Of a stretch of 64,000 nt of DNA, positions 41,803 to 64,000 are shown one piece after another. The position numbers and the translations under genes were made by a program. The notes beneath the pieces are model-generated. The model searched no databases and was not told where the DNA came from. It saw only the letters and a program-made list of their open reading frames with translations. The stretch's first letter is position 1; every line of letters starts with the position of its first letter. The stretch comes from Chlorella sorokiniana. Lineage: Eukaryota > Chlorophyta > Trebouxiophyceae > Chlorellales > Chlorellaceae. The stretch lies in contig CP084620.1 of assembly GCA_025917655.1 (NCBI GenBank), positions 2,542,001-2,606,000 on the forward strand, read 5' to 3'.

Positions 41803-42606
41803 TCAGGCGAGCCAAGGCGGAACACTGGCCTGCGGATCAACGTCCAGTGTATGTGGCAAGCTTGCCCAACGGGGCTGCAGAGCGCTGCGGCACGGCTGCT
41901 GCCAGCAGCGGGGCTCAGAGCTTGCCCTCGCTCTCGGTCGACCGCGGCATGCCCTCCCCTTCTTCACCAGCGCCTCCAGCTGCTTGCTGATGTCCGCCTT
42001 GCTCAGGCCGTCTACCTTCACAGCCTCTTCCACGCCAAAGTCTGGGCGGAGGCGGCAGCAGCGCAGGCTGTTGGGCTCGCAGCGCCACTTGAGCCGCACG
42101 TCACCGTGCTTGCGGGAATGCACAGCTGGAAACGCCAGCGCGGCCAGCCGGCCAGTCTGCTGCATGTCTATGCGTCTCATGCAACAACCCTCACAGCAAA
42201 TCTGGCCATGAGCAGGGCAGGCGCACCATATCGAGCAACAAGCTTGGCCTCCACGCCGCTGCACTCCCGCACCAAGATGGGGAAGGTGGGGTTGGCCTTC
42301 TTGAGCTCCTGATAGCTGCTCATGACGAATTCTCTGCAACAGTTATGCATACGGTTCGGTTCAAAACAAGGTGGCTGCAAAGAAGGCTGCTTTGGCGAGC
42401 AGGGGGCTTCGCACCTGGCACCCTCGCTCGCCTTGGAGGTTTGACACAAGTGTATCCTACAACAGGGATGAAACGGTAGCCTTGCTGTCCGCCGCTGGGT
42501 TCACGGGAGCAAGAGCAGAATGCAGGTGCAGCTTGAGGCTCCGCAACACACTGCAGCCCCACCTTAACTCCTGGAGATTATTGCTTAGCGCACTACGCCA
42601 CGCCAT
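41803..42606 (-). CDS. NDUFA2: Mitochondrial complex I subunit NDUFA2 (B8)
   Basis: NDUFA2 is a thioredoxin-fold accessory subunit of respiratory complex I. Exon 1 from ATG 42606 reads [15 protein letters not shown], close to the plant start MAWRGQLSKNIKELR. Exon 2 gives [14 protein letters not shown], exon 3 [20 protein letters not shown] then [16 protein letters not shown], and exon 4 [20 protein letters not shown] then QLEALVKKG. The [23 protein letters not shown] block is diagnostic. Length to this point, about 98 residues, equals the family. As written, the frame runs on to 41803; one extra G in the GGGG run after VKKG would instead give an early stop at about 41918, which fits the family length better. 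The Cys pair of some NDUFA2 proteins is represented by one Cys in LCQ. Confidence 0.88.
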
Positions 42607-42994
42607 CGTGCGGTATGTGCGCCCAGCCACCCCCAGCAAACGCTCCTCGACTGCTGCAAGCGCCAATTGCGACACTTCCCTGTCAGATCAGCTGTAGAGG
42701 CTCCAGCGACAGCGTCGGAGGTTGGGTTGCACGATCTAAGGCGCGCTCGTTCTCTCTATCCGACATGGAGCTGCGTGGCACTGAGGTGACGTTTTGGGAG
42801 CTTCCACTGTCGCTCTCCTGCGAATCTCACTTTGAATTTCTCCTGGCTATGTTGTGGCGCCGATATGAGTCTTTAAGAGGCAAGCACTTCCCACTGCGTA
42901 ACCCGTCACTGCCAGCACCGGGTTTGTGTACCTCAGAAGGCTCAGAACAAGCTCTGAAACCTCGGTCGCCATCGTCAGTTGACCTGGCGATGTC

Positions 42995-43504
42995 TTGCGT
43001 GGCCTGGGCTCCAGTGGCACATGCCGTACCACGCACATCCCGCCTCCTCGGCAGTGCGTTTCCCCGTTCAGTGGCTCAGTTGCCCCTGTGCACCAGTTGA
43101 AGCCTCTTCTGATCCCAGGTATTGTCCATTGGCGTGCACGAGCCCAATGGTCTGGCTTGGCTTCCAAACGCCGCAATATTCGTTGCCCCGGGCAGCAGCG
43201 GGCTTCTTCAATCTCCAGCATGCAGTCAAGACCGCTTGGCACACGTCGCCTGGCTGGGAGGCGAGCCTGTGGGCATGCCCTGGAACCAGAAGCACATCTG
43301 GTGGTGTGCGATGCCTCCATGCGGGCGGCGCCCTTTGGGCTTTTCCACATGTGCAGTGCCCTTTCGTGCTGCTTTGTGCGCTGGGTGCCGCATGAGTGCC
43401 TGTGGTTGATTGCTCCGTCCGGCGGCACCATGACGGTGCGCTTCCGGCTGGCCCAAAATAGTCTTATGCTTGCTGGCCGTATCACTGGCACAGCATGCCA
43501 GTGA
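42995..43504 (+). CDS. Fragment of local VRFRL-motif family, C-terminal part
   Basis: The end of this frame reads CLWLIAPSGGTMTVRFRLAQ, which aligns with LPLLTHGGIVTVRFRLDPRS at 54.8 kb and LTLLEEGGPVQVRFRLDRWH at 63.1 kb, both C-terminal parts of larger genes. Upstream sequence (VVCDASMRAAPFGLFHMC) is less clearly related and no kinase domain is visible nearby, so this is a partial or decaying copy. It lies on the opposite strand from the other members. Stop at 43504. Confidence 0.35.
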   Translation: MRGLGSSGTCRTTHIPPPRQCVSPFSGSVAPVHQLKPLLIPGIVHWRARAQWSGLASKRRNIRCPGQQRASSISSMQSRPLGTRRLAGRRACGHALEPEAHLVVCDASMRAAPFGLFHMCSALSCCFVRWVPHECLWLIAPSGGTMTVRFRLAQNSLMLAGRITGTACQ

Positions 43505-43604
43505 TACTGATCCTGCATCACGCAACTAGCAGATAGCATGGTTAAAAGTATGCAGGTAGATGGACCACTGAGGTAGTTTCAAACAAAAGAGCGAGATATA
43601 CATT

Positions 43605-43793
43605 TCAAATGCACAGGTGGCAGAGGCCGGCACAGCGCCGCCCGCATGGTGACAACCTCTGGCAGCTGGGGACCTTGCCCTGTTTGCTATGCATGTATTT
43701 CAGGAAGGCTTGGCGTGCGTTGCAGCGCAGCTGCTCCCCATGACTGCTAGGCGGCCCTAGTAGGCGTACTTTCAGCTGTGGTCGTGGCGGCAT
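43605..43793 (-). pseudogene. Decayed copy of the VRFRL-motif family
   Basis: The minus strand reads QLRCNARQAFLKYMHSKQGK, matching ERCDARQAFLAYVHSKQGK in the 54.8-kb gene. After KVP the frame degrades: another frame gives LPEVVTMRAAL in place of GGIVTVRFRL. Most of this copy is one arm of the inverted repeat at 43671-43901. Confidence 0.4.
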
Positions 43794-43901
43794 GAGGAGA
43801 AAGTACGCCTACTAGGGCCGCCTAGCAGTCATGGGGAGCAGCTGCGCTGCAACGCACGCCAAGCCTTCCTGAAATACATGCACAGCAAACAGGGCAAGGT
43901 C
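43671..43901. repeat. Inverted repeat, two 103-bp arms, 25-bp spacer
   Basis: Arms 43671-43773 and 43799-43901 are reverse complements with a single mismatch that I can see (position 43690). Each carries the same family coding fragment (NARQAFLKYMHSKQGKV) in opposite directions. The right arm runs almost directly into the first degenerate unit of the large tandem array. Confidence 0.95.
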
Positions 43902-43942
43902 CCAGGCTGCGGAGGCGGTGGTTGCCGCCACTGCGATGTCAA

Positions 43943-46900
43943 AGGGCGGTTGGACGAAGAGGCCCTGCTGCACATGCTGCTGCATATGCCATGCGCCGCC
44001 CTGCACACTCATGAGATGGTATCAGTCACAGCAGAAGGCCTGGGAGGGCCCCAGCAGGCCCGGCAGACGAAACGCCCTCGCCCCACGAAATGCCCTCCCC
44101 CACGAAATGCCCTCGCACCTGGCAGCAGGGCGGTAGGATGGTTCTGGCCTGCTGCGCATGCCCTGCACCTCTCTGCACACACACGAGATGGTATCAGTCA
44201 CAGCAGAAGGCCTGGGAGGACCACAGCAGGCCCGGCAGACGAAACGCCCTCGCCCCACGAAATGCCCTCCCCCACGAAATGCCCTCGCACCTGGCGGCAG
44301 GGCGGTTGGATGGTTCTGGCCTGCTGCACATGATGCTGCGCATGCCCTGCACCTCTCTGCACACACATGAGATGGTATCAGTCACAGCAGAAGGCTGGGA
44401 GGGCCACAGCAGGCCTGGCAGACGAAACGCCCTCGCCCCACGAAATGCCCTCCCCCACGAAATGCCCTCGCACCTGGCGGCAGGGCGGTTGGATGGTTCT
44501 GGCCTGCTGCACATGCCCTGCACCTCTCTGCACACACATGAGATGGTATCAGTCACAGAAGAAGGCCTGGGAGGGCCACAGCAGGCCCGGCAGACGAAAC
44601 GCCCTCGCCCCACGAAATGCCCTCCCCCACGAAATGCCCTCGCACCTGGCGGCAGGGCGGTTGGATGGTTCTGGCCTGCTGCACATGATGCTGCGCATGC
44701 CCTGCACCTCTCTGCACACACATGAGATGGTATCAGTCACAGCAGAAGGCCTGGGAGGGCCACAGCAGGCCCGGCAGACGAAACGCCCTCGCCCCACGAA
44801 ATGCCCTCCCCCACGAAATGCCCTCGCACCTGGCGGCAGGGCGGTTGGATGGTTCTGGCCTGCTGCACATGCCCTGCACCTCTCTGCACACACATGAGAT
44901 GGTATCAGTCACAGAAGAAGGCCTGGGAGGGCCACAGCAGGCCCGGCAGACGAAACGCCCTCGCCCCACGAAATGCCCTCCCCCACGAAATGCCCTCGCA
45001 CCTGGCGGCAGGGCGGTTGGATGGTTCTGGCCTGCTGCGCATGATGCTGCGCATGCCCTGCACCTCTCTGCACACACATGAGATGGTATCAGTCACAGCA
45101 GAAGGCTGGGAGGGCCACAGCAGGCCTGGCAGACGAAACGCCCTCGCCCCACGAAATGCCCTCCCCCACGAAATGCCCTCGCACCTGGCGGCAGGGCGGT
45201 AGGATGGTTCTGGCCTGCTGCGCATGCCCTGCACCTCTCTGCACACACATGAGATGGTATCAGTCACAGAAGAAGGCCTGGGAGGGCCACAGCAGGCCCG
45301 GCAGACGAAACGCCCTCGCCCCACGAAATGCCCTCCCCCACGAAATGCCCTCGCACCTGGCGGCAGGGCGGTAGGATGGTTCTGGCCTGCTGCGCATGCC
45401 CTGCACCTCTCTGCACACACATGAGATGGTATCAGTCACAGGAGAAGGCTGGGAGGGCCACAGCAGGCCTGGCAGACGAAACGCCCTCGCCCCACGAAAT
45501 GCCCTCCCCCACGAAATGCCCTCGCACCTGGCGGCAGGGCGGTTGGATGGTTCTGGCCTGCTGCGCATGCCCTGCACCTCTGCACACACACGAGATGGTA
45601 TCAGTCACAGCAGAAGGCCTGGGAGGGCCACAGCAGGCCCGGCAGACGAAACGCCCTCGCCCCACGAAATGCCCTCCCCCACGAAATGCCCTCGCACCTG
45701 GCGGCAGGGCGGTTGGATGGTTCTGGCCTGCTGCGCATGCCCTGCACCTCTCTGCACACACACGAGATGGTATCAGTCACAGCAGAAGGCCTGGGAGGGC
45801 CACAGCAGGCCCGGCAGACGAAACGCCCTCGCCCCACGAAATGCCCTCCCCCACGAAATGCCCTCGCACCTGGCGGCAGGGCGGTAGGATGGTTCTGGCC
45901 TGCTGCGCATGCCCTGCACCTCTCTGCACACACATGAGATGGTATCAGTCACAGGAGAAGGCTGGGAGGGCCACAGCAGGCCCGGCAGACGAAACGCCCT
46001 CGCCCCACGAAATGCCCTCCCCCACGAAATGCCCTCGCACCTGGCGGCAGGGCGAATGGATGGTTCTGGCCTGCTGCGCATGCCCTGCACCTCTCTGCAC
46101 ACACACGAGATGGTATCAGTCACAGGAGAAGGCCTGGGAGGGCCACAGCAGGCCCGGCAGACGAAACGCCCTCGCCCCACGAAATGCCCTCCCCCACGAA
46201 ATGCCCTCGCACCTGGCGGCAGGGCGGTAGGATGGTTCTGGCCTGCTGCGCATGCCCTGCACCTCTCTGCACACACATGAGATGGTATCAGTCACAGCAG
46301 AAGGCCTGGGAGGGCCACAGCAGGCCCGGCAGACGAAACGCCCTCGCCCCACGAAATGCCCTCCCCCACGAAATGCCCTCGCACCTGGCGGCAGGGCGGT
46401 TGGATGGTTCTGGCCTGCTGCACATGATGCTGCGCATGCCCTGCACCTCTCTGCACACACATGAGATGGTATCAGTCACAGCAGAAGGCCTGGGAGGGCC
46501 ACAGCAGGCCCGGCAGACGAAACGCCCTCGCCCCACGAAATGCCCTCCCCCACGAAATGCCCTCGCACCTGGCGGCAGGGCGGTTGGATGGTTCTGGCCT
46601 GCTGCACATGATGCTGCGCATGCCCTGCACCTCTCTGCACACACACGAGATGGTATCAGTCACAGCAGAAGGCCTGGGAGGGCCACAGCAGGCCCGGCAG
46701 ACGAAACGCCCTCGCCCCACGAAATGCCCTCCCCCACGAAATGCCCTCGCACCTGGCGGCAGGGCGGTTGGATGGTTCTGGCCTGCTGCACATGATGCTG
46801 CGCATGCCCTGCACCTCTCTGCACACACATGAGATGGTATCAGTCACAGCAGAAGGCCTGGGAGGGCCACAGCAGGCCCGGCAGACGAAACGCCCTCGCC

Positions 46901-49900
46901 CCACGAAATGCCCTCCCCCACGAAATGCCCTCGCACCTGGCGGCAGGGCGGTTGGATGGTTCTGGCCTGCTGCACATGATGCTGCGCATGCCCTGCACCT
47001 CTCTGCACACACATGAGATGGTATCAGTCACAGCAGAAGGCCTGGGAGGGCCCCAGCAGGCCCGGCAGACGAAACGCCCTCGCCCCACGAAATGCCCTCC
47101 CCCACGAAATGCCCTCGCACCTGGCGGCAGGGCGGTTGGATGGTTCTGGCCTGCTGCGCATGATGCTGCGCATGCCCTGCACCTCTCTGCACACACATGA
47201 GATGGTATCAGTCACAGCAGAAGGCCTGGGAGGACCACAGCAGGCCCGGCAGACGAAACGCCCTCGCCCCACGAAATGCCCTCCCCCACGAAATGCCCTC
47301 GCACCTGGCGGCAGGGCGGTTGGATGGTTCTGGCCTGCTGCGCATGCCCTGCACCTCTCTGCACACACACGAGATGGTATCAGTCACAGCAGAAGGCCTG
47401 GGAGGGCCACAGCAGGCCCGGCAGACGAAACGCCCTCGCCCCACGAAATGCCCTCCCCCACGAAATGCCCTCGCACCTGGCGGCAGGGCGGTAGGATGGT
47501 TCTGGCCTGCTGCGCATGCCCTGCACCTCTCTGCACACACATGAGATGGTATCAGTCACAGGAGAAGGCTGGGAGGGCCACAGCAGGCCCGGCAGACGAA
47601 ACGCCCTCGCCCCACGAAATGCCCTCCCCCACGAAATGCCCTCGCACCTGGCGGCAGGGCGAATGGATGGTTCTGGCCTGCTGCGCATGCCCTGCACCTC
47701 TCTGCACACACACGAGATGGTATCAGTCACAGGAGAAGGCCTGGGAGGGCCACAGCAGGCCCGGCAGACGAAACGCCCTCGCCCCACGAAATGCCCTCCC
47801 CCACGAAATGCCCTCGCACCTGGCGGCAGGGCGGTAGGATGGTTCTGGCCTGCTGCGCATGCCCTGCACCTCTCTGCACACACATGAGATGGTATCAGTC
47901 ACAGCAGAAGGCCTGGGAGGGCCACAGCAGGCCCGGCAGACGAAACGCCCTCGCCCCACGAAATGCCCTCCCCCACGAAATGCCCTCGCACCTGGCGGCA
48001 GGGCGGTAGGATGGTTCTGGCCTGCTGCGCATGCCCTGCACCTCTCTGCACACACATGAGATGGTATCAGTCACAGCAGAAGGCCTGGGAGGGCCACCGC
48101 AGGCCCGGCAGACGAAACGCCCTCGCCCCACGAAATGCCCTCCCCCACGAAATGCCCTCGCACCTGGCGGCAGGGCGGTTGGATGGTTCTGGCCTGCTGC
48201 GCATGCCCTGCACCTCTCTGCACACACACGAGATGGTATCAGTCACAGAAGAAGGCCTGGGAGGGCCACAGCAGGCCCGGCAGACGAAACGCCCTCGCCC
48301 CACGAAATGCCCTCCCCCACGAAATGCCCTCGCACCTGGCGGCAGGGCGGTAGGATGGTTCTGGCCTGCTGCGCATGCCCTGCACCTCTCTGCACACACA
48401 TGAGATGGTATCAGTCACAGGAGAAGGCTGGGAGGGCCACAGCAGGCCTGGCAGACGAAACGCCCTCGCCCCACGAAATGCCCTCCCCCACGAAATGCCC
48501 TCGCACCTGGCGGCAGGGCGGTAGGATGGTTCTGGCCTGCTGCACATGATGCTGCACCTCTCTGCACACACATGAGATGGTATCAGTCACAGAAGAAGGC
48601 CTGGGAGGGCCACAGCAGGCCCGGCAGACGAAACGCCCTCGCCCCACGAAATGCCCTCCCCCACGAAATGCCCTCGCACCTGGCGGCAGGGCGGTAGGAT
48701 GGTTCTGGCCTGCTGCGCATGCCCTGCACCTCTCTGCACACACATGAGATGGTATCAGTCACAGGAGAAGGCTGGGAGGGCCACAGCAGGCCTGGCAGAC
48801 GAAACGCCCTCGCCCCACGAAATGCCCTCCCCCCCACGAAATGCCCTCGCACCTGGCAGCAGGGCGAATGGATGGTTCTGGCCTGCTGCACATGATGCTG
48901 CGCATGCCCTGCACCTCTCTGCACACACATGAGATGGTATCAGTCACAGCAGAAGGCCTGGGAGGGCCACCGCAGGCCTGGCAGACGAAACGCCCTCGCC
49001 CCCACGAAATGCCCTCCCCCACGAAATGCCCTCGCACCTGGCGGCAGGGCGGTTGGATGGTTCTGGCCTGCTGCACATGATGCTGCGCATGCCCTGCACC
49101 TCTCTGCACACACATGAGATGGTATCAGTCACAGCAGAAGGCTGGGAGGGCCACAGCAGGCCTGGCAGACGAAACGCCCTCGCCCCACAAAATGCCCTCC
49201 CCCACGAAATGCCCTCGCACCTGGCGGCAGGGCGGTAGGATGGTTCTGGCCTGCTGCGCATGCCCTGCACCTCTCTGCACACACATGAGATGGTATCAGT
49301 CACAGCAGAAGGCCTGGGAGGGCCACCGCAGGCCCGGCAGACGAAACGCCCTCGCCCCACAAAATGCCCTCCCCCACGAAATGCCCTCGCACCTGGCGGC
49401 AGGGCGGTTGGATGGTTCTGGCCTGCTGCGCATGCCCTGCACCTCTCTGCACACACATGAGATGGTATCAGTCACAGAAGAAGGCCTGGGAGGGCCACAG
49501 CAGGCCCGGCAGACGAAACGCCCTCGCCCCACGAAATGCCCTCCCCCACGAAATGCCCTCGCACCTGGCGGCAGGGCGGTAGGATGGTTCTGGCCTGCTG
49601 CGCATGCCCTGCACCTCTCTGCACACACATGAGATGGTATCAGTCACAGCAGAAGGCCTGGGAGGGCCACAGCAGGCCCGGCAGACGAAACGCCCTCGCC
49701 CCACGAAATGCCCTCCCCCACGAAATGCCCTCGCACCTGGCGGCAGGGCGGTTGGATGGTTCTGGCCTGCTGCACATGATGCTGCGCATGCCCTGCACCT
49801 CTCTGCACACACATGAGATGGTATCAGTCACAGCAGAAGGCCTGGGAGGGCCACAGCAGGCCCGGCAGACGAAACGCCCGCGCCCCACGAAATGCCCTCC

Positions 49901-52900
49901 CCCACGAAATGCCCTCGCACCTGGCGGCAGGGCGGTTGGATGGTTCTGGCCTGCTGCACATGCCCTGCACCTCTCTGCACACACATGAGATGGTATCAGT
50001 CACAGAAGAAGGCCTGGGAGGGCCACAGCAGGCCCGGCAGACGAAACGCCCTCGCCCCACGAAATGCCCTCCCCCACGAAATGCCCTCGCACCTGGCAGC
50101 AGGGCGGTTGGATGGTTCTGGCCTGCTGCGCATGATGCTGCGCATGCCCTGCACCTCTCTGCACACACATGAGATGGTATCAGTCACAGCAGAAGGCCTG
50201 GGAGGACCACAGCAGGCCCGGCAGACGAAACGCCCTCGCCCCACGAAATGCCCTCCCCCACGAAATGCCCTCGCACCTGGCGGCAGGGCGGTTGGATGGT
50301 TCTGGCCTGCTGCGCATGCCCTGCACCTCTCTGCACACACACGAGATGGTATCAGTCACAGCAGAAGGCCTGGGAGGGCCACAGCAGGCCCGGCAGACGA
50401 AACGCCCTCGCCCCACGAAATGCCCTCCCCCACGAAATGCCCTCGCACCTGGCGGCAGGGCGGTAGGATGGTTCTGGCCTGCTGCGCATGCCCTGCACCT
50501 CTCTGCACACACATGAGATGGTATCAGTCACAGGAGAAGGCTGGGAGGGCCACAGCAGGCCCGGCAGACGAAACGCCCTCGCCCCACGAAATGCCCTCCC
50601 CCACGAAATGCCCTCGCACCTGGCGGCAGGGCGAATGGATGGTTCTGGCCTGCTGCGCATGCCCTGCACCTCTCTGCACACACACGAGATGGTATCAGTC
50701 ACAGGAGAAGGCCTGGGAGGGCCACAGCAGGCCCGGCAGACGAAACGCCCTCGCCCCACGAAATGCCCTCCCCCACGAAATGCCCTCGCACCTGGCGGCA
50801 GGGCGGTAGGATGGTTCTGGCCTGCTGCGCATGCCCTGCACCTCTCTGCACACACATGAGATGGTATCAGTCACAGCAGAAGGCCTGGGAGGGCCACAGC
50901 AGGCCCGGCAGACGAAACGCCCGCGCCCCACGAAATGCCCTCCCCCACGAAATGCCCTCGCACCTGGCGGCAGGGCGGTAGGATGGTTCTGGCCTGCTGC
51001 GCATGCCCTGCACCTCTCTGCACACACATGAGATGGTATCAGTCACAGCAGAAGGCCTGGGAGGGCCACCGCAGGCCCGGCAGACGAAACGCCCTCGCCC
51101 CACAAAATGCCCTCCCCCACGAAATGCCCTCGCACCTGGCGGCAGGGCGGTTGGATGGTTCTGGCCTGCTGCGCATGCCCTGCACCTCTCTGCACACACA
51201 TGAGATGGTATCAGTCACAGAAGAAGGCCTGGGAGGGCCACAGCAGGCCCGGCAGACGAAACGCCCTCGCCCCACGAAATGCCCTCCCCCCCACGAAATG
51301 CCCTCGCACCTGGCGGCAGGGCGGTAGGATGGTTCTGGCCTGCTGCGCATGCCCTGCACCTCTCTGCACACACATGAGATGGTATCAGTCACAGGAGAAG
51401 GCTGGGAGGGCCACAGCAGGCCCGGCAGACGAATCGCCCTCGCCCCACGAAATGCCCTCCCCCACGAAATGCCCTCGCACCTGGCGGCAGGGCGGTTGGA
51501 TGGTTCTGGCCTGCTGCACATGATGCTGCGCATGCCCTGCACCTCTCTGCACACACATGAGATGGTATCACTCACAGCAGAAGGCCTGGGAGGACCACAG
51601 CAGGCCCGGCAGACGAAACGCCCTCGCCCCACGAAATGCCCTCCCCCACGAAATGCCCTCGCACCTGGCGGCAGGGCGGTTGGATGGTTCTGGCCTGCTG
51701 CACATGATGCTGCGCATGCCCTGCACCTCTCTGCACACACACGAGATGGTATCAGTCACAGCAGAAGGCCTGGGAGGGCCCCAGCAGGCCCGGCAGACGA
51801 AACGCCCTCGCCCCACGAAATGCCCTCCCCCACGAAATGCCCTCGCACCTGGCGGCAGGGCGGTTGGATGGTTCTGGCCTGCTGCGCATGCCCTGCACCT
51901 CTCTGCACACACACGAGATGGTATCAGTCACAGCAGAAGGCCTGGGAGGGCCACAGCAGGCCCGGCAGACGAAACGCCCTCGCCCCACGAAATGCCCTCC
52001 CCCATGAAATGCCCTCGCACCTGGCGGCAGGGCAAATGGATGGTTCTGGCCTGCTGCGCATGCCCTGCACCTCTCTGCACACACATGAGATGGTATCAGT
52101 CACAGCAGAAGGCCTGGGAGGGCCACAGCAGGCCCGGCAGACGAAACGCCCTCGCCCCACGAAATGCCCTCCCCCACGAAATGCCCTCGCACCTGGCGGC
52201 AGGGCGGTAGGATGGTTCTGGCCTGCTGCGCATGCCCTGCACCTCCCTGAACACACACAAGATGGTATCAGTCACAGGAGAAGGCCTGGGAGGGCCACAG
52301 CAGGCCCGGCAGACGAAACGCCCTCGCCCCACGAAATGCCCTCCCCCACGAAATGCCCTCGCACCTGGCGGCAGGGCGGTTGGATGGTTCTGGCCTGCTG
52401 CGCATGCCCTGCACCACTCTGCACACACATGAGATGGTATCAGTCACAGGAGAAGGCCTGGGAGGGCCACAGCAGGCCCGGCAGACGAAACGCCCTCGCC
52501 CCACGAAATGCCCTCCCCCACGAAATGCCCTCGCATCTGGCGGCAGGGCAAATGGATGGTTCTGGCCTGCTGCGCATGCCCTGCACCTCCCAGAACACAC
52601 ATGAGATGGTATCAGTCACAGGGGAAGGCTGGGAGGGCCACAGCAGGCCTGGCAGACGAAACGCCCTCGCCCCACGAAATGCCCTCCCCCACGAAATGCC
52701 CTCGCACCTGGCGGCAGGGCGGTTGGATGGTTCTGGCCTGCTGCGCATGCCCTGCACCTCCCTGAACACACACAAGATGGTGTCAGTCAAAGGAGAAGGC
52801 CTTGGGGGCCTCAGCAGGCCCGGCAGACGAAACGCCCTCGCCCCACGAAATGCCCTCCCCCACGAAATGCCCTCGCACCTGGCGGCAGGGCGGTAGGATG

Positions 52901-54179
52901 GTTCTGGCCTGCTGCGCATGCCCCTGCACCTCTCTGCACACACACGAGATGGTATCAGTCACAGGAGAAGGCTGCGAGGGCCACAGCAGGCCCGGCAGAC
53001 GAAACGCCCTCGCCCCACGAAATGCCCTCCCCCACGAAATGCCCTCGCACCTGGCGGCAGGGCGGTTGGATGGTTCTGGCCTGCTGCGCATGCCCTGCAC
53101 CTCTCTGCACACACACAAGATGGTATCAGTCACAGGAGAAGGCCTGGGAGGGCCACAGCAGGCCCGGCAGACGAAACGCCCTCGCCCCACGAAATGCCCT
53201 CCCCCACGAAATGCCCTCGCACCTGGCGGCAGGGCGGTTGGATGGTTCTGGCCTGCTGCGCATGCCCTGCACCTCTCTGCACACACATGAGATGGTATCA
53301 GTCAAAGGAGAAGGCCTGGGAGGGCCACAGCAGGCCCGGCAGACGAAACGCCCTCGCCCCACGAAATGCCCTCCCCCACGAAATGCCCTCGCACCTGGCG
53401 GCAGGGCGGTTGGATGGTTCTGGCCTGCTGCGCATGCCCTGCACCTCCCTGAACACACACAAGATTGTATCAGTCACAGGAGAAGGCCTGGGAGGGCCAC
53501 AGCAGGCCCGGCAGACGAAACGCCCTCGCCCCACGAAATGCCCTCCCCCACGAAATGCCCTCGCACCTGGCGGCAGGGCGGTAGGATGGTTCTGGCCTGC
53601 TGCGCATGCCCTGCACCTCTCTGCACACACACGAGATGGTATCAGTCACAGGAGAAGGCCTGGGAGGGCCACAGCAGGCCCGGCAGACGAAACGCCCTCG
53701 CCCCACGAAATGCCCTCCCCCACGAAATGCCCTCGCACCTGGCGGCAGGGCGGTTGGATGGTTCTGGCCTGCTGCGCATGCCCTGCACCACTCTGCACAC
53801 ACATGAGATGGTATCAGTCACAGGAGAAGGCTGGGAATGCCACAGCAGGCCCGGCAGACGAAACGCCCTCGCCCCACGAAATGCCCTCCCCCACGAAATG
53901 CCCTCGCACCTGGCGGCAGGGCGGTTGGATGGTTCTGGCCTGCTGCGCATGCCCTGCACCTCTCTGCACACACACGAGATGGTATCAGTCACAGCAGAAG
54001 GCCTGGGAGGGCCACAGCAGGCCCGGCAGACGAAACGCCCTCGCCCCACGAAATGCCCTCCCCCACGAAATGCCCTCGCACCTGGCGGCAGGGCGGTTGG
54101 ATTGTTCTGGCCTGCTGCACATGATGCCGCGCATGCCCTGCACCTCTCTGCACACACATGAGATGGTATCAGTCACAGA
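43943..54179. repeat. Tandem satellite array, about 58 units of 172 or 184 bp
   Basis: The sequence GAGATGGTATCAGTCACAG, or a near variant, recurs 59 times from about 44014 to 54160, a mean spacing of 175 bp. Units fall in two main classes differing by a 12-bp insertion (CATGATGCTGCG type): about 172 and about 184 bp, with one-base-shorter variants. Each unit contains two copies of CCCCACGAAATGCCCTC in tandem, a G/C-rich core (CCCGGCAGACGAAACGCC) and a CA-rich end. The first unit (43943-44014) and those after about 52240 are more diverged than the centre. All units point the same way. There are no spacers of unique sequence, so it is not a CRISPR array, and no transposase, tRNA or rRNA sequence is visible inside. 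Confidence 0.97.
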
Positions 54180-54315
54180 ATTGCAGCCGCTCCGAGTCGG
54201 TTGGATTTGTCGCCTGATGCAGCGCCGCCGTGGCGCCCCCAACACACGGCTGCCTTGTTGGCGGAGTGCTGCCTCATTTCTTACGCTTTCCACATTCGTC
54301 CTGCTATATAATTGA
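51349..54315 (+). other. Longest open stretches inside the satellite array
   Basis: Two long plus-strand frames occur here, 51349-52896 (515 codons) and 52918-54315 (465 codons). They exist because the unit has few stops and a length of 1 modulo 3, so a frame passes through all three readings of the unit every three copies. The resulting peptide is Pro/Arg/His/Cys-rich (HTHEMVSVTAEGLGGPQQAR, TKRPRPTKCPPPRNALAPGG). Comparable frames occur elsewhere in the array. I see no start context, intron or conserved domain, and treat coding as unproven. Confidence 0.3.
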
Positions 54316-54785
54316 GAAGGCGCGTCGCTGCGGCTGGCGACGCCCACGTTGCGCCTCTTAGCGGCCTGAACCCAGCTTTTGCGCTACAGCGTTGATCATT
54401 CACATCTTGAACGAATGATTGCGTAAAAGAGCCACCTCTATAGGGTTACCTTGACACGCAGCCCGGCCCAAACCTGCTGCTGACCATACCGCCGCACACA
54501 TGTGCATGGAAAGCGAGGTACTATCAAATGCATACAGGGTGATTGGCAAAGCTAGAATGTGTGCCCACATACGATGCCATGAAGGTTGCGGGCAAGCTGA
54601 GGGCTCTTGCAAGCCAAGGTGAAGCGCTGGTGTGCGCATACCACCCACCTTCCCAACCTTTGCCTGCTTGTGCAAACCCAGCTATCCGCCAAGGGTTGCT
54701 GGTTAGCATATGTGAACACGGCTGGGACCTCAGCACTTGGACACCTTCTGGCATGCCCACCCATGTCTACATCACCGTTTCAACA
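54180..54785. other. Right flank of the array
   Basis: Unique sequence between the array and the 3' end of the kinase gene. It includes CTATATAATTG at about 54303 and otherwise nothing I can assign. Confidence 0.4.
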
Positions 54786-57700
54786 TCATGTCATCACTAC
54801 TGTGCAGGCAGAGTCACCCTCGCTGTGCCAGGATGAGTTTGTGATGTGAGCAAACAAAAAGCTGCGAGGGTCCAGGCGGAAGCGCACCGTCACGATGCCG
54901 CCGTGCGTGAGCAGGGGCAGCTTCCCCTGCTTGCTGTGCACGTATGCAAGGAAAGCCTGGCGCGCGTCGCAACGCTCCTGCGCCCTCATGCCTGCCAGGC
55001 GGCTGCAATCCGCATACTCGCGGCTCACGGCACCCTTTGTTGCAGCGGCAGCCGCCGCCTGTGCATTGTCGCCGCCTCCCGCGTCGCGCTCAACATCGTC
55101 CAGCCTGTCCCCAGCAAACTCCAGGCGGAAGACGGTGGTGGGCATGGCTGCGGCAGCGCTGGGGTCGTCCTCCAGCAGGCAGGCCAGGTCCACCTCGATG
55201 TGATCTGCAGACAGTGCTGGAGGGAAAGATGGTGCCACATCTGTTGCAATCTCACAACGCGCCAGAGGCTGGCATGATGGGCGCCGACAGGCACATGGGC
55301 GCCCAGCGACAAGCCAAAAGCAACCACATCTTGCCTGTAATGGTTTTTGCCTGGCGAACGTTCTCCATCTCCACGCCCTGGCTGGCAGCGAAGGCTTGCA
55401 GCGCGCTGTCGGGCTCGAGCACTGAGCCAATGGCAGCCCGCAAGGCCCTACTGCCATACCACTGCAGCAGCATGCATGAATGGTGGTGGATGCAGCTGGT
55501 TCGGCATGATAGCGTGTGCACAGACACCAGCACGCTCACATGGAACCGCTCAGGCTTCAAGGGTTCCGGCACTTACCAGGAGCACCGCGATGTCTGCTTT
55601 GTACAAGCGGTTGAGCAACCTCAAGCCAGAACCCAGCAGCAGGACGCGGGCTGGAAGGTTGTGGGATGAGCACTTCTTGATGAGCGGAACAAGCAGCTGC
55701 CAATGGGGGAAAGAGCGCAGGTCAGCCGTGAAGGAAAGAACTGCCCGTGGATTGACAGCCGGATGATGGGCGCCGCACGACAGAATTTCCCTTCTAGATG
55801 AAGAGCTCACCTGGTTGGGCAGAACCGCGTTCAGCTTGGAAAGACTGGCAATTTCCTGTTCAGCCCAGCGACCTGCGCGCTGTGCATTGCTGGTATCTTC
55901 CAGCACCCCAGCGATGCCGCGCTTGGTGCGTGACTGGCTGCTTGCTGCAGCTTGCCGAACAAGGCGAGGCCGCATGTCATTAAAACCGGCACCGCCATCT
56001 GCAGGGATGGGATGCGACGTCGCCAGACGCGCATTGGGGAACGGGCACCACCGTTCCATGTCAGCCTCCAGGCCTGCAAGTGTAGGCCCGCCAAAGGCTT
56101 CCTGCACTAACATGCAAAACACAGCGTCAAGGAGGCATGCACTGGCAGGGTTTTGCCAAGATTTGTGCCGCTTCATGCTGTCAAGAACCCTTTCCTGCAG
56201 CAGGGTTGGTGATGTCTCTGGCAGGGGCTCGCCAGCCTGGCGCGCAGCTGCCAGTGCCCCTGCTCCTTCAAGCAGGCACGTCTGGCGATGTTGGGTAACA
56301 TGCACAGGTTCCGCCTGGCGAGCAGGCGATGCGCTCGTGCCGCCCATGATGCGGTTGCGCACGTGCTGGACAGCTGCTCGCCTCGCACAAGTCTGCAGGA
56401 GGTGCTCCGCGTCCTGAGGTGACAACATGGGCTGCAGCGTCAGCTGGTGGGCAGGTCTCTGCGTGGGGTTGGGGGGCTTTGGCAGGGCAGGCGGGAGCTG
56501 GCCAACGTTCAGCTGTCTAGGCCGCAGCGGTGACCTTGCGAGGCACTCGCGCTGAGCAGCCGCATCCTGCTGCTGTCCCACAATGGGGCTGTCAAGCGAG
56601 AGGCCTGGGAGCCTCAAGAGCTCCTGTAAAAATGCAGTTGAATGTGCTGGCATGGGAACACTGGTGGTGGGCTGACCAGCGATGCCAGCAGATGGGTCTT
56701 TCGGTGTAGTAGCAGCGCCGACTGCAGCAGGAGCGCCTTGGCCAGGCGTACCCCCTCGCTGGCCTGGAGCATGGCGCTGCATGCTGTAGTTGCAGCTGCT
56801 GAACCTGTCGCCACTGCTAGCTCGTGGGGGGGAGGGGCGGCAGCCGCTGTCGCTGCTGCTGGCTCTTGCAGGGCAGGGGCGGCTGCTGTCGCCGCTGCTG
56901 GCTCTTGCGGGGCAGAAGCGGCCGCTGTCGCAGCTGTTGGTGGGGCTTGAGGCAGCTGATCCTCCAGGAGGGCATCCACCATGTCAGCACATCGTGCCTC
57001 CAATGAGGCATTCATGCTGCCCTGCGTGGGGACGTGCTGCTGCCCCTCTGCATGGCCCAAAGTGACGTTGGCCAGCAATGGCAGTTGCGGCAGCACAATC
57101 TGGGGCATGTGATCCGCTGACGCAGCAGGAAAAGCTGGTGCTGCTTCCACGTGCTGCGCTGGCAGCTGCTGGGTGTCAGCGACAGGCGCGACAAGGATGG
57201 GTGGTGCAGGTGCCGTGAAGGGCGGCGGCACAGCCTGCTCTGCGAACAGAGGCTGAATAGCCACTGCGGCAGGCAGTGCCGCCACAAAGAGCCGCTGTGC
57301 TGGGGTTGCTGCAATCTGGACAGCAGGCGCATCTTGAGGCGCTGGAGGAGCTAGCGACGGGTCAACCACGGCGTATGGCATGGCAGGGGATGGGGTTGGC
57401 GCCTGGAAAGGCTGGCGTGCAGGGGCCAGCGCATACAGCGGCGGCGGGTTTGCAACGTCAATGAGCTCCGTCAGGAGTTGACGCACTGTGTACGAGTGTG
57501 TCATGCTCATGACTGGCCCGCCCTGCATCCGATGCCGAATCTCATCCAGCTTGTGCTGCAAGCGCAGGAGGATGACATCCGACTCCCTTGAGATGTCAGC
57601 CAGGAGGCCATTCACGCGATCAGTGGTCCACTTGTCCAGGTAGGCGGTGAGGGTGAACTGCAGCTGATGCCAGCACACCAGAGCGGCAGACGAGGTGGCC

Positions 57701-60700
57701 AGCACGGTTGTGTCCCAGGCTGCGCAGCAGGCCAGAGGGGTTGCTGCTCAGCATCAACTGGTAGAAGCTCAGGGTGCTTGGTTGGGGGTCGGAACAGACA
57801 AAGCACAGCTGACCAGGACACAACGCAAGATTGCGAGAACACCCCCTACCGGTTGCGCCTGCACTCACTGCTTGTGTCAAGGCGGAAGCCGGGCGGTGCC
57901 GCCTCTGCCCGGTTCCGCAGCAGAGCATAGGTGCGTGCCAGCTCGGGGCCACCAGCTTCAGCGCAAAGGTTGTAGCCAGCGAGGCGCAAAGCCATTGCAA
58001 GTCGGTGCCCGTGCCGTCGTCGTGCGGCGCCAGCCGCGGCAGCACAACAAACTGGAGGAACTCTGCAGGCTCCAAGATGCCAAGGTCCACCGAAGCCGAG
58101 CCAGTGCCATCCAGCATCAGGCCTGGCATCTCATATGGGAAATTTGAATTAAATGAGCAGTACACGGACAGGTGGAGCTTGTCCAATAAACTTGGCTCTT
58201 GCGTCCAGTCCGGCATCCAGGCCTGCATGCTGGCCACTGCAGGAACAGATGGTGTTGCCGTCACAGGTGTCATGGGCCTCTCTTTCAATGCATTGGGTAG
58301 AGTTCCTGCCTTGCAGCAATCCCACCTGTGTTCGCGCAAGCGCTCTGCACCAGCATGGCGATTGTTGGTGCGCTCCTGTCGCACCACAGAGCAAATAGCG
58401 GCCCTGCCCTACTGTGCAGCGGCAGGCCATCAGTCTGCCATCCAAACTGCAGGTATTTGTCGTACTGCGGCACTGGGTACATCTCTGTAACCGGCTGCAT
58501 TGCCGCCGCAAAGGCACTGCAGGGGAGTGGTAGCTCTGTCAGCCACCAACACAAGCAGCCGCCAAGCCCTTCATGTGATGCTGCTCCTCACATGATGTCC
58601 ATGACTTCAGGGAGGGCCTGAGTGCGGAAGCACAGCCGAATGGGGCGAGGCTGCAGGGCATGTGAACGTATTGGTAAAAGGTGCTTTGCCAAGCGAGATG
58701 AGAACAAGATCGACTGTCTTTCAATGACCACTGACATGAATAAGAGGCTCCCAATTTACCGTGTCATCGCTGTCGTCCTGCAGGAGCCGGTTCAAGTGTT
58801 CCAGCTGGCTGCAGCCCCAGACGTAAATTGCCACCGCCTTGGCGCGCACCCTGGCCGGCAGCAGGGAGGCCACCTGCGTCGGGGGCAGGGAGAGACAACA
58901 ATTTCACCAGAATGGCACCCAGCCATAAAGTTGCTGGCCAGTTCTGGGCTTGCTGCATTATGGTTGCAGTCATGCACAGCAGCACACCTCTGGGCATGCG
59001 AGGGTTGTCCACGCTGACAGGGCTCCCCTCACAAGGGTGCATTGGTTGTAGGCCTGCAGGCCATGCAGCCTCACGCAAGTGGTACTTGACGCCTTCTCAC
59101 TGGCTGAGAAGAAGAGACGGTTTGGGGCTGGTTTCTCACCTCAGCTCCAGTTGCCCAGCTTGCTGCCAGCACCTCCGCCAAGGCGGTGATGGTGTCTGCG
59201 TGGTGCCTCAGGTTACCACGCATGTTGGGAGACAAGCGCATAAGCAATGCAAGGACGACCTGCGCCAGCTGCAGCATCTGCAGGCCGAAGACAGCCAGCA
59301 CAGCAGTCTTGCAAGGCATGCTGTGGACACATTGCAACCAAAGGCATATGACGTGCAGTGCACCTCTCGCAACATCCCTCAGCAAGACCTACCATACTGT
59401 GGACTGGGCATCCCCGACGGAAGCCGCGCTTGGCCGTGTCCGGCGTCCACAGGCAGCCGTTGGCAACCAAGTGGCGCAGCAGGAGGTCTGCCAGCTTGTT
59501 AGGCTGCTTCATGGCTACAGGTAGGAATGCACCCCAAGTCTGGTAAGCACTTCTGCTTGACTTGAACATCCACAACGCCAGCAACTGCTACATGCATCCA
59601 CAGCAACACAGTGCAGGCCTACCATTGGCATATCCTGGTATGCCCCACAGCAGCTCCACGCAGATAAACCCAAAGCCAACCAGGTCAGAGGAACTTTCCA
59701 ACTTGTGTTCCACGTACAACTCGGGTGCCAACGCCACCTTGTTGCCGCGAAATAGCACGTGGCCACGACTGCATGAGTAGTGGCGTTGGGGCATGCATGA
59801 GCAAGGGCCTAGCACAGTAGCTCTCGCTAAAGTGCAGCAATACTGCTCAAGGTACGCAGAGCGGGCATCCCCGACCAAACAGAGCACAACCAAAGAGAGC
59901 ACAACACTTCAGCCCGCTCTGCATCACGAAACACACGCCGCTGCAGCGATGCCCACCTGAGGAAGTCCCTGCTGTCATCAGGTAAGCTGGGTGCTGGGAT
60001 GCCCGTGAGCTCCTTTGGCATGCCCCAGTACTGCACAAGGCCAGCATCTATTAACCGCACCTTCTTGCCACCTTCCTCCACCTGCAGTCAACAGGCCCAA
60101 ACCGGCTCAAACAAGGCAAAAGCCTGGCACGCTGGTAGTGCTGCTGCAGGGGCAGCCTTGGTGGTTTGCTGAAGCAGCAATACCATGACATTATCATCCT
60201 TTAGGTCCCTGTGCACCAGCCCATGCTGCTGCAAGAACTTGAGGCTCTTGGTCAGGCCGCAGATGACGCTGAAAAGGGACTTCTCACGTAGCACGTAGCT
60301 GTACTTGCAGCCCTCGCACTCCCGCATCCTGCAGGTAAGGATGAGGTAGGGATGATTTGCACAAGCCAGACAAATTTGATGGCATTGGGAATAAGGATAA
60401 AGGCAGGACGCAGGGGGAATGTGTGCCAAACTGGGTGCTACAAACAACATCTAGTTTCAGCAGCACCCACATGGTGGTTGGCTCACATGCGCACATGCAT
60501 GTAGCCCGCCCACTATATAAGCAGCACAGGACGGGAAAAGGCATGCCCTCAGGCAGGGGCAGCTTGATTACTCACCTTCCCAGGCGCTGGAGCGTGTCTT
60601 GGCCCAAGTACTCAAGCATGATGGCAGAGGGGAGCGAGTCTTGGGTGCCGCAGTGGGCGGCAAGAAGCCCTGGAAAGATGAAGCGTTTGACGTCAAGGGC

Positions 60701-61400
60701 CAGGACCTCCACCTCATGGTGCATTTCAGCGCTGTCGTTATACAGCTTTACGGCCACCAGACGGCTCTCGTCGATGCCTGCGCAGCGACAGATAGAGGAG
60801 CAGGAGGGCAGGCTTGACCTTGCGCAGCTTGCGTAGCTTTCATCAAACTGGTGAGCACCCAAGTCACGAGATCTGACATCCACCCCATGTTGTCCTTTAC
60901 GGAAAACACAAGGTCCGCCATTCCTCACCGAGTGCTACGGTGCCAAAGCTTCCAGCACCCAGACGCGCCGCTCGCTCAAGGTTGAAGGGCAGGTCCCAGA
61001 CTTCAAGTCCCCGAGAGGTAGACGGGTTGAGGTTGAACTCCAGTCCACGAGCAATCGCGTCGCCTATACGGTTCCATGTGGTAAGGAGCTGTGCCTGCAT
61101 GGCGCATGCCAAGAAAGAGCAGGGGCGGGTTAAGATCGGCAGCAACGCAGGCGGGTTGCGCGACATCAGCGGTGCCTGCAGCTCGCCCCTATGCACCGAG
61201 GGCCATATCAATATTGTCTCATCGTCGAGCCTCACCTTGCAGCTGTCAAGGTTGAGGTGCAGCTTCAGCAGAGCGGCCTGTTCCGCCTGCTGCAGTTGCG
61301 CAGCCATCACCCTCGCCGGCACTCTGCGCCCCTCGGACTTTGTAAGGTGGCCCGACAGGCATATACAGGCCGATGCCGGGCTTTTGTTGAAGTCCGGCAC
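54786..61400 (-). CDS. Large protein kinase with family-specific C-terminal region
   Basis: From ATG 61400, a helical N-terminus (LQQAEQAALLKLHLNLDSCK) leads to a kinase domain: Gly loop LGAGSFGTVAL (60931-60969), LVAVKLYND with the ATP Lys, LPSAIMLEYLG, GLVHRDLKDDNVM (60182-60220), LIDAGL (about 60040) with DAG for DFG, LAPEL (about 59730) and SDLVGFGFICVELLWG. The Mg-binding Asp and the catalytic Asp and Asn are kept, so it is probably active. After VRAKAVAIYVWGCSQLEHLN, a GTGAGG donor near 58591 joins EVMDI in phase to AFAAAMQPVTEMYPVPQYDK. The C-terminal part includes DKWTTDRVNGLLADISRESD, an Ala/Pro/Gln-rich repeat region (56.7-57.4 kb), LKRHKSWQNPASA-type sequence, HIEVDLACLLEDDPSA and the VRFRL block. 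If that donor is unused, the kinase ends at 58588 and a second gene follows. Confidence 0.65.
56850..56940. repeat. Ala/Pro/Gln coding repeat in the kinase gene
   Basis: Two to three copies of a roughly 42-bp unit encode QEPAAATAAAP-like repeats in the low-complexity linker of the kinase protein. Confidence 0.65.
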
Positions 61401-62001
61401 CTGCTAGCCCTCTGCTGGCGAAGTCTGCACAGCTCGGCGAAAGCACCCGCCAGAGGGCCACAGTGACGGCATAAGCGCGTTTTAGAATGTACTGAGCGAT
61501 TTAAATGTGAATCAAGGCTGGTTGCAAGCGTGGGCGTGTATCTTCTGGTCCAGTGCTGAGTTGGCTCAAATGGCAGGCTCAAATGCCGACATCCGTTTGG
61601 CGTTCCCGATATTTGTAGATGCTAAGTGCAAGCTATTTGGACCACCAGGAGGGCCTGAAAAGGACGCCTCCCCTTTCCGCACAGTCCCGCTGCAAGCAAT
61701 GCTTCCAGCATAGTCTGAGGTGTGCCATACCGTCACTAAAAGTGAGCTTGACCGGGATTATGAACGGCCATCAGAGCCACGCCCTTGCAAGTCCATGTCG
61801 TGCTACTCTGGTAGTTGGCCTCAGACGATTCGCTCTCATTTGTTTTACAGCCCATGCAAACTTGTGCGATCAGATACAGCCGCTAATGCGCACTATGCAG
61901 CATGGCCGCCCACCCCCGCCTTGCCGCTAAGTGGTGCGCCGCTCCACGCAGGAGCCTCGCATTCATTGTGCCGCCGCCTGCCGAATCTGCCCATTCTCTG
62001 C
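61401..62001. other. Divergent promoter region, kinase gene and MOCS2B
   Basis: About 600 bases of mixed composition, with weak open stretches but no protein I can support. It should hold both promoters. No TATA-like element is obvious. Confidence 0.4.
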
Positions 62002-62852
62002 ATGGAGCAAGCAGCTGCGGAGCTGCATGAAGGCCCTTGCTACGCAGAGGTGACCCCTGCCCCGCTGGACCAGGCCAAGTATGTGGGCCTGGTGAGCGAC
62101 CCGGGGGCGGGCGCCATCGCCACCTTCCTGGGCGTCACTCGTAACAACTTCGAGGGCAAGGCCACAGAGCGGCTGGAGTACGAGGCATACGTGCCCATGG
62201 CTGCCAGGAAGCTTATGGTGAGTAGGTGAGGGTGTGCCAGCCTGCAGCACAACAGCGCTCAGTGCGGCATGTGCTGTTGCGTACAAGAATCTGGCTGCTG
62301 TCGTGCTTCCACAGGAGCTGTGCCAGCAGGCGTGCCGGCAATGGCAGCTGTGCAAGATAGCTGTGGCGCATCGTTCTGGGGCGGTGCTGGTTGGGGAGGC
62401 GTCTGTCATTATTGCCGTGTCGTCTGCACACCGCAGGGAGGCACTGGAGGTGGGTGGCAAGGCTTGCTCGAGTGTTGGTCCTCCTCCTTTGCTGTGATTC
62501 AGGCAGCAGATGGCATTCTGGTTTGGTTGTATGCCAGACATTATTTGGGCCCAGTTGCACGCGGTCTGGCATAATGCAGGCTTGCCACTGGGCCATCGAT
62601 GAGCTGAAAGCCACAGTACCCATCTGGAAGAAAGGTGGGTTCAGCGTTTCTGCCCGCGCATCGCAATCTGCTGCAAGGGCTACCCCACAGCTGCTCATCA
62701 CTGCCTCATGCGCCCTGGATTCAATTTCAGAGTTCTTTGAAGGTGGCGAGGTGTGGAAGGAGAATGAAGAGTGGCGGCAGCAGCAGCGAGCGCAGCGACT
62801 CCAGCAGCAGCAGCAGCAGCAGCAGCAGGCCGCTGCTACGGCTACACAGTAA
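62002..62852 (+). CDS. MOCS2B: Molybdopterin synthase catalytic (large) subunit
   Basis: The large subunit (MoaE, plant CNX6) works with the sulfur carrier MOCS2A to convert cyclic pyranopterin phosphate to molybdopterin in the cytosol. Four exons, 62002-62217, 62315-62449, 62580-62634 and 62731-62852, join in phase to 175 residues with GT-AG introns and no frame break. Motifs in order: GAGAIATFLGVTRNNFEGK, LEYEAYVPMAARKLM, KIAVAHRSGAVLVGEASV, IIAVSSAHRREALE, ACHWAIDELKATVPIWKKEF and GGEVWKENEEW. The Lys residues of KATVPIWKKE include the conserved active-site Lys. The C-terminus adds an unusual Gln-rich tail (QQQRAQRL, nine Gln, AAATATQ) from a CAG tract. Start 62002 directly precedes conserved sequence. 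Confidence 0.95.
62802..62828 (+). repeat. CAG triplet tract in the MOCS2B last exon
   Basis: Nine CAG codons in a row encode polyglutamine near the C-terminus of MOCS2B, outside the conserved enzyme fold. Confidence 0.9.
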
Positions 62853-63038
62853 CGCAACATGGCAGCTTCCAGAAGATTGAAGCTGAACGAGAAACGGAAG
62901 GAGCCCACACACCCTCTGGTATACCTTACAGCGGTTCATTACATCTGCACTTCTGCTGATGTGCATCTGTGCTGCATCTTGCAGTCTGTGCAATTGGTAG
63001 AAACACACGCAAATGAGAATGTTATCGTAGTAGCGCAA

Positions 63039-64000
63039 TTACTCGGCCGAGCGCGGCAGGTTGACGGTGATTGTGTGCCAGCCGCCCTTGGCAGCAAACT
63101 CCAGCACCTTGTGCCAGCGGTCCAGGCGAAACCGCACCTGCACAGGGCCGCCCTCCTCCAGCAAGGTCAAGTTGCCCTGGCTGTCCTGCAACCAGGTCAG
63201 AAAGGCCCTGCGCGCTGCCTGCTGCTGGGTTGGGGAGCTGGGCCAGCCTAGAGCACTTGGCCCAGAGCTGGATTGGGCCGCCGCCCTTCACTGGCTCTGC
63301 CAGGGTTGCCTCAGCCCCGGACTTAAGCTCAGGGTGTCCCTGCCGCACGCTGAATGGCATTGCCAGCGCTGCGATGGGGTCGGCCACCATCCAGGCCATG
63401 TCAACTTCAAAATAATCTGCACAGAGAAAAGAACATTCACGCCGTGAGTGGGCACGCTGTGAGCGGAGGCATAAGTGTACAGTTATGCACATCTGCTTTA
63501 CCTGAAAACTGCACTGCTGACATACAGTTGCACAAGCGGCGCAGGTCGACTTCCAACATCCCCTGACTTTTCGCCAGCTCCTGCAGTGTCCCTGCGCTTC
63601 CAAGAGCCCCATAGAGCTGCTCCGCCATGGCTGTGCGAACCAGCGCGTCACCCGCCACCTGCACGGGCGAAAGCCAGCACCAGGTGAGCAGCGCTTGACA
63701 ACGGCACCCTGAGGAGCGCCCTGCAGCAAGAGTAGCGCGCAAAGTTGGGCGCTTACCATTTGTCGCCGGAAAGTGGCTTCGCATGGGCGTAGAGACTTCT
63801 GCAGCTGGTCGGTGGCAAGCAGCATCCCAGGGAGAAGGGGCATGCGCTTGTTCGCTGCCAGAAGCCGCACCAGGCACTGCGGGAAATGACGATTTGATGA
63901 ACGCATGTTTGAAGGGGTGCACTGACCAATCAAACACACCTGGTCGTTAGGCAGCACCACTGGCAGCCTGCTGAAAGCTTCAAAAGTGCTTGCGGCCACC
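63039..64000 (-). CDS. C-terminal part of a kinase-gene paralogue (runs off right edge)
   Basis: Exons in order: AASTFEAFSRLPVVLPNDQ; QCLVRLLAANKRMPLLPGML then LATDQLQKSLRPCEATFRRQ; VAGDALVRTAMAEQLYGALG then SAGTLQELAKSQGMLEVDLR; DYFEVDMAWMVADPIAALAM; and, after a frame break near 63247, RRAFLTWLQDSQGNLTLLEE, GGPVQVRFRLDRWHKVLEFA and WHTITVNLPRSAE with stop at 63039-63041. Each block has a counterpart in the 54.8-kb gene: LLVPLIKKCSSHNLPARVLL, ALRAAIGSVLEPDSALQAFA, ADHIEVDLACLLEDDPSA, and ARQAFLAYVHSKQGK followed by GGIVTVRFRL. The function of this region is unknown. Any kinase domain would lie beyond the window. Confidence 0.65.

What the first reader, a model, noticed from the sequence alone, without database searches (positions are those of the whole stretch)
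43943..54179. Ten-kilobase satellite of about 58 units embedded in a gene family cluster
A GC-rich, single-orientation array with 59 recurrences of GAGATGGTATCAGTCACAG replaces gene sequence between NDUFA2 and a kinase gene. Unit size near nucleosome length (172/184 bp) and high homogeneity are features of centromeric or heterochromatic satellites, but it sits among ordinary genes and is not AT-rich. It could be a centromere-like element, a heterochromatin seed, or an amplified piece of coding sequence.
Basis: partly seen in the sequence, partly recalled or inferred. Interest (0 to 1): 0.85.

Follow-up and report, generated by a model that had tools for sequence, protein, structure and literature searches.

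The report
Single-locus satellite array in green alga
A ten-kilobase stretch of 58 near-identical noncoding DNA repeats on one chromosome of a Chlorella-like green alga looks like an ordinary local repeat expansion rather than a centromere, with a small relative of it lying nearby.

Summary
The array is real. Window 43943-54178 holds 58 units (32 of 172 bp, 12 of 184 bp, the rest 169-185), one orientation, mean pairwise identity 97.6%. The 59 recurrences are 53 exact plus 6 with 1-3 substitutions.

The centromere reading is not supported. Unit patterns searched over the 38.8-Mb genome occur only here and at two small sites 49-55 kb away, inverted. Copia-type RT matches form one block per contig on 11 of 15 contigs, as in published Chlorella centromeres (PMC11005252); on this contig the block lies 223 kb from the array.

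It is not coding: every frame has at least 23 stops. A 2.3-unit relative, 85-88% identical, lies nearby; some right-hand units keep alleles shared with it, though one shared allele sits elsewhere. Identical multi-unit blocks reach 824 bp. Best reading: a young satellite amplified locally, with no evident function. A 112-bp near-perfect palindrome lies 32 bp to its left; any causal role is inference. Reads, chromatin and the base rate of such arrays were not tested.

The parts
43943..54178 (+). Satellite array: left pseudo-unit (43943-44012), 58 units of 169-185 bp (44013-54159) and a last 19-bp anchor, single orientation
   Evidence: TRF; anchors and unit lengths; unit alignment
43943..44012 (+). 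Divergent left-edge pseudo-unit (43943-44039 is 85% identical to the 184-bp form, 62% in register with the 172-bp form), where the array decays into flank
   Evidence: the repeat finder; alignment
51915..53975 (+). Right-hand units u46-u57, more divergent among themselves (96.4% against 98.1% for u1-u45), holding some alleles shared with the small relative 55 kb away (junction CCTGAACACACACAAG at 52246, 52761, 53448)
47127..47950 (+). 824-bp block identical to the one starting at 50099 (offset 2972 bp); related 773-bp block 45628/47235
43662..43910 (.). Palindrome: 112-nt arms with 3 mismatches and a 25-nt spacer, with two oppositely oriented fragments of the neighbouring gene family; 32 bp between its end and the array. 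Belonging to the array's origin is inference
   Evidence: predicted RNA hairpin -250.6 against -92.0 +/- 5.3 kcal/mol for mononucleotide shuffles
54786..57747 (-). Three overlapping or adjoining minus-strand ORFs taken as one neighbouring gene whose 3' end faces the array; no Pfam match at E up to 1
   Evidence: ORFs, Pfam, family search with one 123-aa piece; that they are one gene is inferred
42177..42500 (-). NDUFA2-type exon (L51_S25_CI-B8 domain), left neighbour transcribed away from the array
   Evidence: Pfam PF05047 E 9.3e-12; PDB complex I B8 subunits

Best explanation
The array is a chromosome-specific, noncoding satellite made by local tandem amplification. Shown: at the searched sensitivity the unit occurs only here and in a 2.3-unit relative plus a fragment 49-55 kb away in opposite orientation; the array carries duplicated multi-unit blocks; its right-hand units are more divergent and some keep alleles shared with the relative. 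Inferred: a few units of a pre-existing neighbourhood repeat grew to 58 by unequal exchange between sister chromatids or by replication template switching, copying several units at a time. The unit's own 17-bp subrepeats and 12-bp duplication point to small-scale slippage as well, giving the 172/184-bp forms. It probably does nothing specific and persists as a neutral array in an intergenic gap.
For: Genome-wide pattern counts equal the local counts exactly: 53+0, 57+3 and 113+2. A DNA search found the relative at C4:2530786-2531201 (84% and 75% pieces) and a fragment at C4:2536676-2536757. The relative's two full units are 84.8% (171 columns) and 88.1% (168 columns) identical to the array consensus, insertions not counted. 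Alleles 175C/179A occur only in u47, u49, u50 and u54 and are in both relative units; 0A occurs only in u48, u51, u53 and u55 and is in the second relative unit. Identical blocks of 824, 773 and 716 bp lie at offsets near 17, 9 and 26 units. No frame is open through the array: 23-30 stops on the plus strand, 38-42 on the minus strand. No Rfam match at gathering score over 42000-56000.
Against: At column 38 the allele C, in both relative units, is kept in u01, u18 and u45, not in the right-hand block, and overall identity to the relative's second unit does not differ between u1-u45 and u46-u57 (0.874 against 0.872); so an older right side is only weakly supported. No reads or expression data were available; a transcribed or chromatin function would not be visible here.
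Confidence: 0.85

Rival explanations
1. The array is the centromere, or a centromere-competent satellite, of contig C4.
For: Unit length 172/184 bp, homogeneity and multi-unit repeated blocks resemble centromeric satellites. The LINE-type RT clusters seen on other contigs have no strong counterpart on C4: only two weak hits at 677.9-680.0 kb, none.
Against: C4 carries 34 of the 89 listed Copia-type (RVT_2) matches, all inside 2268858-2362689; the other 55 lie in one block (1 to 12 matches) on each of 10 further contigs. TE clusters of this kind are the reported Chlorella centromeres (PMC11005252, sections 6 and 8 read). The array is 10 kb long, 223 kb away, between genes, with the unit on one contig only. 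The blocks here are centromeres by analogy only.
Confidence: 0.03
2. The array is a local heterochromatin or silencing seed: the adjacent palindrome makes a hairpin RNA that is processed to small RNAs and silences the locus.
For: 112-nt arms with 3 mismatches lie 32 bp from the array, with a very stable predicted hairpin. A Piwi-domain gene is present (four exon-like pieces at C1:3585026-3586341). Array CpG o/e is 0.56 against 0.73 and 0.64 in the 5-kb flanks.
Against: No repeat of 15 nt or more between the palindrome and the first units is listed, so its RNA would not be aimed at the array. It shares no exact 15-mer with the 54786-55535 ORF, though 83 nt match at 79.5%. CpG enrichment among variable columns is not significant (p 0.057). 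Four of the ten 1-kb windows from 54001 to 64000 have CpG o/e of 0.50-0.56 too.
Confidence: 0.05
3. Assembly artefact: copy number inflated or collapsed.
For: Tandem arrays are a known assembly hazard (title and abstract start of PMC6868369 seen); no reads were available to me.
Against: There are 43 distinct sequences among the 58 units, and the longest exact internal repeat is 824 bp, so reads of a few kb could place the units.
Confidence: 0.05
4. Amplified coding exon giving a repetitive protein.
For: ORFs of up to 522 aa run through parts of the array, and the 189-aa open frame at 43764-44333 joins a gene-family fragment to the first unit.
Against: At least 23 stops in every frame. Unit lengths of 172 and 184 shift the frame at each unit. 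The small relative follows what I read as a stop codon.
Confidence: 0.02

Closest known systems
Chromosome-specific satellite or long minisatellite arrays grown by unequal exchange (general class, recalled)
   Same: Head-to-tail units, homogenised core, divergent edges, copied multi-unit blocks, one locus
   Different: Nothing in kind; the unit has no match outside this chromosomal neighbourhood at the searched sensitivity
Alpha-satellite-type centromeric arrays (monomers of about 171 bp; abstract start of PMC9221937 seen)
   Same: Unit length and repeated blocks
   Different: 10 kb, one contig only, 64-65% GC, genes close on both sides, putative TE centromere elsewhere on the contig
TE-cluster centromeres of Chlorella, Coccomyxa and Chlamydomonas (PMC11005252 abstract, sections 6 and 8 and passages; PMC8226300 passages)
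   Same: Such blocks are found in this same genome, one per contig on 11 of 15 contigs for Copia-type RT
   Different: No listed match or 38 falls in the array, and the array lies outside the block

Membership tests
Local tandem satellite array | Head-to-tail copies of a unit over 100 bp with high identity | tested here: met
Local tandem satellite array | Confined to one locus or neighbourhood | tested here: met
   hits on C4 within about 66 kb; one search's list was cut, but its totals equal the local counts
Local tandem satellite array | Multi-unit block duplication and homogenisation | tested here: met
Local tandem satellite array | Copy number confirmed by reads | not testable with these tools
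   no reads
Centromeric satellite | Present on all or most chromosomes | tested here: not met
Centromeric satellite | Lies in the region identified as centromere | tested here: not met
   Copia-type block at C4:2268858-2362689; the block is a putative centromere by analogy, not by ChIP
Centromeric satellite | CENH3 binding | not testable with these tools
   no ChIP data
Heterochromatic satellite | H3K9 or DNA methylation | not testable with these tools
   sequence proxy (CpG) inconclusive
Repetitive coding exon | Open frame through the units | tested here: not met

The most novel reading that the evidence does not exclude
A satellite caught soon after birth. A young near-perfect palindrome in a rearranged gene fragment repeatedly stalled or broke replication forks, and repair by template switching copied the next-door noncoding repeat into a 58-unit array, while its 2.3-unit relative, at the edge of a segmental duplication 55 kb away, stayed small. 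The locus would then show palindrome-driven birth of a satellite.
Probability: 0.1. Interest if true: 0.5.

Novelty: new member of a known kind. Interest (0 to 1): 0.2.

Why it matters
As it stands, it is a clean example of a locus-restricted satellite with a partly readable history in a compact green-algal genome whose centromeres look transposon-based. It shows that satellites with nucleosome-length units in such a genome need not be centromeric. If the palindrome link held, it would give a testable system for how satellites start.

Tried and rejected
Centromere: rejected on unit distribution and on the position of the Copia-type block. Coding amplification: rejected on broken frames. Known RNA family: no Rfam match at gathering score in 42000-56000. 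tRNA-like unit: ARAGORN (bacterial code) found 0 in the window. Stable unit RNA structure: unit folds are within about one standard deviation of 100 mononucleotide shuffles (172-bp unit -63.8 against -60.6 +/- 4.8 on plus, -76.5 against -72.5 +/- 4.1 on minus; 184-bp unit -67.2 against -64.3 +/- 4.8). Bacterial promoter and terminator scan of 43600-44400: 0 promoter-like and 1 terminator-like site, and not suited to this organism. CpG decay as a methylation mark: 9 of 21 transition columns lie in CpG, Fisher p 0.057, inconclusive. Hairpin RNA against the neighbour ORF: no shared exact 15-mer. Other Pfam scans: of 15 window ORFs scanned, the NDUFA2-type exon alone passed its cut-off; one weak Fer2 hit (E 0.044, below its cut-off) fell on the ORF at 43764-44333. 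Literature: eight searches (one search found 0 papers). I saw listings only, except PMC11005252 (outline with abstract, find passages, sections 6 and 8) and PMC8226300 (find passages). No listed title or abstract start mentions such an array. Base rate of similar arrays in the genome: not obtained.

Full report
What is there. The window is contig C4:2542001-2606000 of a 38.8-Mb, 15-contig genome. TRF finds one array at 43977-54178, period 172, 58.3 copies. The anchor GAGATGGTATCAGTCACAG occurs 53 times exactly, never in reverse complement, and 59 times when substitutions are allowed (6 sites with 1-3), bounding 58 units. Lengths are 32 of 172, 12 of 184, 9 of 171, 2 of 185 and one each of 169, 174 and 183. 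There are 43 distinct sequences among the 58 units. Mean pairwise identity over ungapped columns is 97.6%, range 91.8-100%. 15 of 58 units carry a 12-bp duplication; long and short forms, the long ones a base shorter, are also seen in the relative described below. Each of the 58 units also contains 2.4-2.8 copies of a 17-19-bp subrepeat (58 TRF rows). GC is 0.64-0.65, like the rest of the window.

Organism. A PsaD gene is present. The 85 aligned residues of its main exon are nearly identical to chain D of PDB 6ZZX, the best single-domain chain (a three-domain chain, 9VFJ, ranks first by E-value). I recall 6ZZX as the Chlorella ohadii photosystem I. The genome is therefore taken as a Chlorella-like green alga; the species is not established.

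Distribution. Three patterns were counted genome-wide and reconciled with local counts: the anchor 53+0; a 23-mer from another part of the unit with up to 3 mismatches 57+3; and a 19-mer with up to 2 mismatches 113+2. The listing was cut, but its totals equal the local counts in the window array (113) and in the relative (2). The control reading of the 23-mer (read backwards) gave 1 chance hit. The reverse-strand copies of the 23-mer are at C4:2530834, 2531013 and 2536682. A DNA search with the left end of the array gave the same places. So within these sensitivities the unit exists in the array, in a mini-array of about 2.3 units at C4:2530786-2531201, and as a fragment at C4:2536676-2536757. 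One search did not list the array itself, since that search skips very common words, so it alone would not have been enough; more diverged relatives elsewhere could have been missed.

History. The two full units of the mini-array are 84.8% and 88.1% identical to the array consensus. The pair 175C/179A is found only in units u47, u49, u50 and u54 and is in both mini-array units; 0A is found only in u48, u51, u53 and u55 and is in the second mini-array unit. Joined, they give the junction CCTGAACACACACAAG, which occurs 3 times in the array (52246, 52761, 53448) and once on the minus strand of the 17 kb upstream. Units u46-u57 are less alike (96.4%) than u1-u45 (98.1%). Against an older right side: at column 38 the allele C, in both mini-array units, is kept in u01, u18 and u45, and overall identity to the second mini-array unit is the same for both groups (0.874 and 0.872). 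Exact blocks of 824, 773 and 716 bp recur at offsets of 2972, 1607 and 4579 bp, about 17, 9 and 26 units, so several units were copied together. The reading is growth by unequal exchange or template switching; the process itself is inferred, and an older right side is a weak lead.

Not a centromere. A search for the Copia-type RT (RVT_2) gave 89 matches. By my count they lie in a single block on each of 11 contigs (C2-C10, C12, C13; one match only on C9), and 34 of the 89 are on C4, all within 2268858-2362689. LINE-type RT searches (the name RTE-like for the query is mine) show clusters near the same places on C2, C3, C5, C6, C7, C8, C9, C12 and C13, and a cluster on C1. They also show scattered hits elsewhere (for example C1:3445124, C2:850084, C3:931121, C6:2285997, C10:1826683). 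On C4 there are only two weak hits at 677.9-680.0 kb, away from both the Copia-type block and the array. All these counts are lower bounds by the tool's own note. In Chlorella sorokiniana NS4-2 the predicted TE-cluster centromeres, 28-104 kb long, agree with CENH3 ChIP-seq, and Chlorella centromeres hold Copia, L1 and RTE-X elements in varying mixtures (PMC11005252, abstract and sections 6 and 8). The 94-kb C4 block fits that range. The array at C4:2585943-2596178 is 223 kb from it and between genes. The blocks are putative centromeres by analogy only.

Not coding. Each of the six frames has 23-42 stops across 43943-54178.

Neighbourhood. To the left, transcribed away, is an NDUFA2-type exon (PF05047; PDB). 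To the right, with the 3' end facing the array, are minus-strand ORFs taken as one gene without a Pfam match. A kinase-like gene lies further right at about 59.8-61.4 kb; I call it so from motifs, recalled, in ORF translations, and those ORFs were not sent to Pfam. A 123-aa piece of the right neighbour matches itself, two oppositely oriented fragments at 43836-43970 and 43665-43736, and an exon at 63117-63227. The two left fragments lie in the palindrome 43662-43910: 112-nt arms, 3 mismatches, 25-nt spacer. A genome search with 43000-43960 gave only itself and this self-match. The array starts 32 bp further. Whether the palindrome helped the array to grow is open.

Verdict. This is an ordinary kind of feature, a young chromosome-specific satellite, with a partly readable local history. 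What I could not test: read support, base rate of such arrays, chromatin, transcription, related species.

Noticed in passing
window 43662-43910: Near-perfect 112-bp palindrome of a gene-family fragment; predicted RNA hairpin of -250.6 kcal/mol.
   Followed up: partly
L014 and L015 (C4:2531199-2536757): Two pieces of a segmental duplication (91.7% and 97.1%) whose outer ends abut the satellite mini-array and the satellite fragment, as if satellite units sat at the breakpoints.
   Followed up: partly
G000 C5:1463366-1474943: Seven Copia-type RT fragments spaced 1908-1910 bp apart: a tandem array of a retrotransposon piece inside the putative C5 centromere block.
   Followed up: no
G000 C2-C10, C12, C13: One Copia-type block per contig on 11 of 15 contigs, a putative centromere map for this genome by analogy with published Chlorella.
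   Followed up: partly
G000 C1:3585026-3586341: Piwi-domain gene in four exon-like pieces, so small-RNA silencing may exist in this alga.
   Followed up: no
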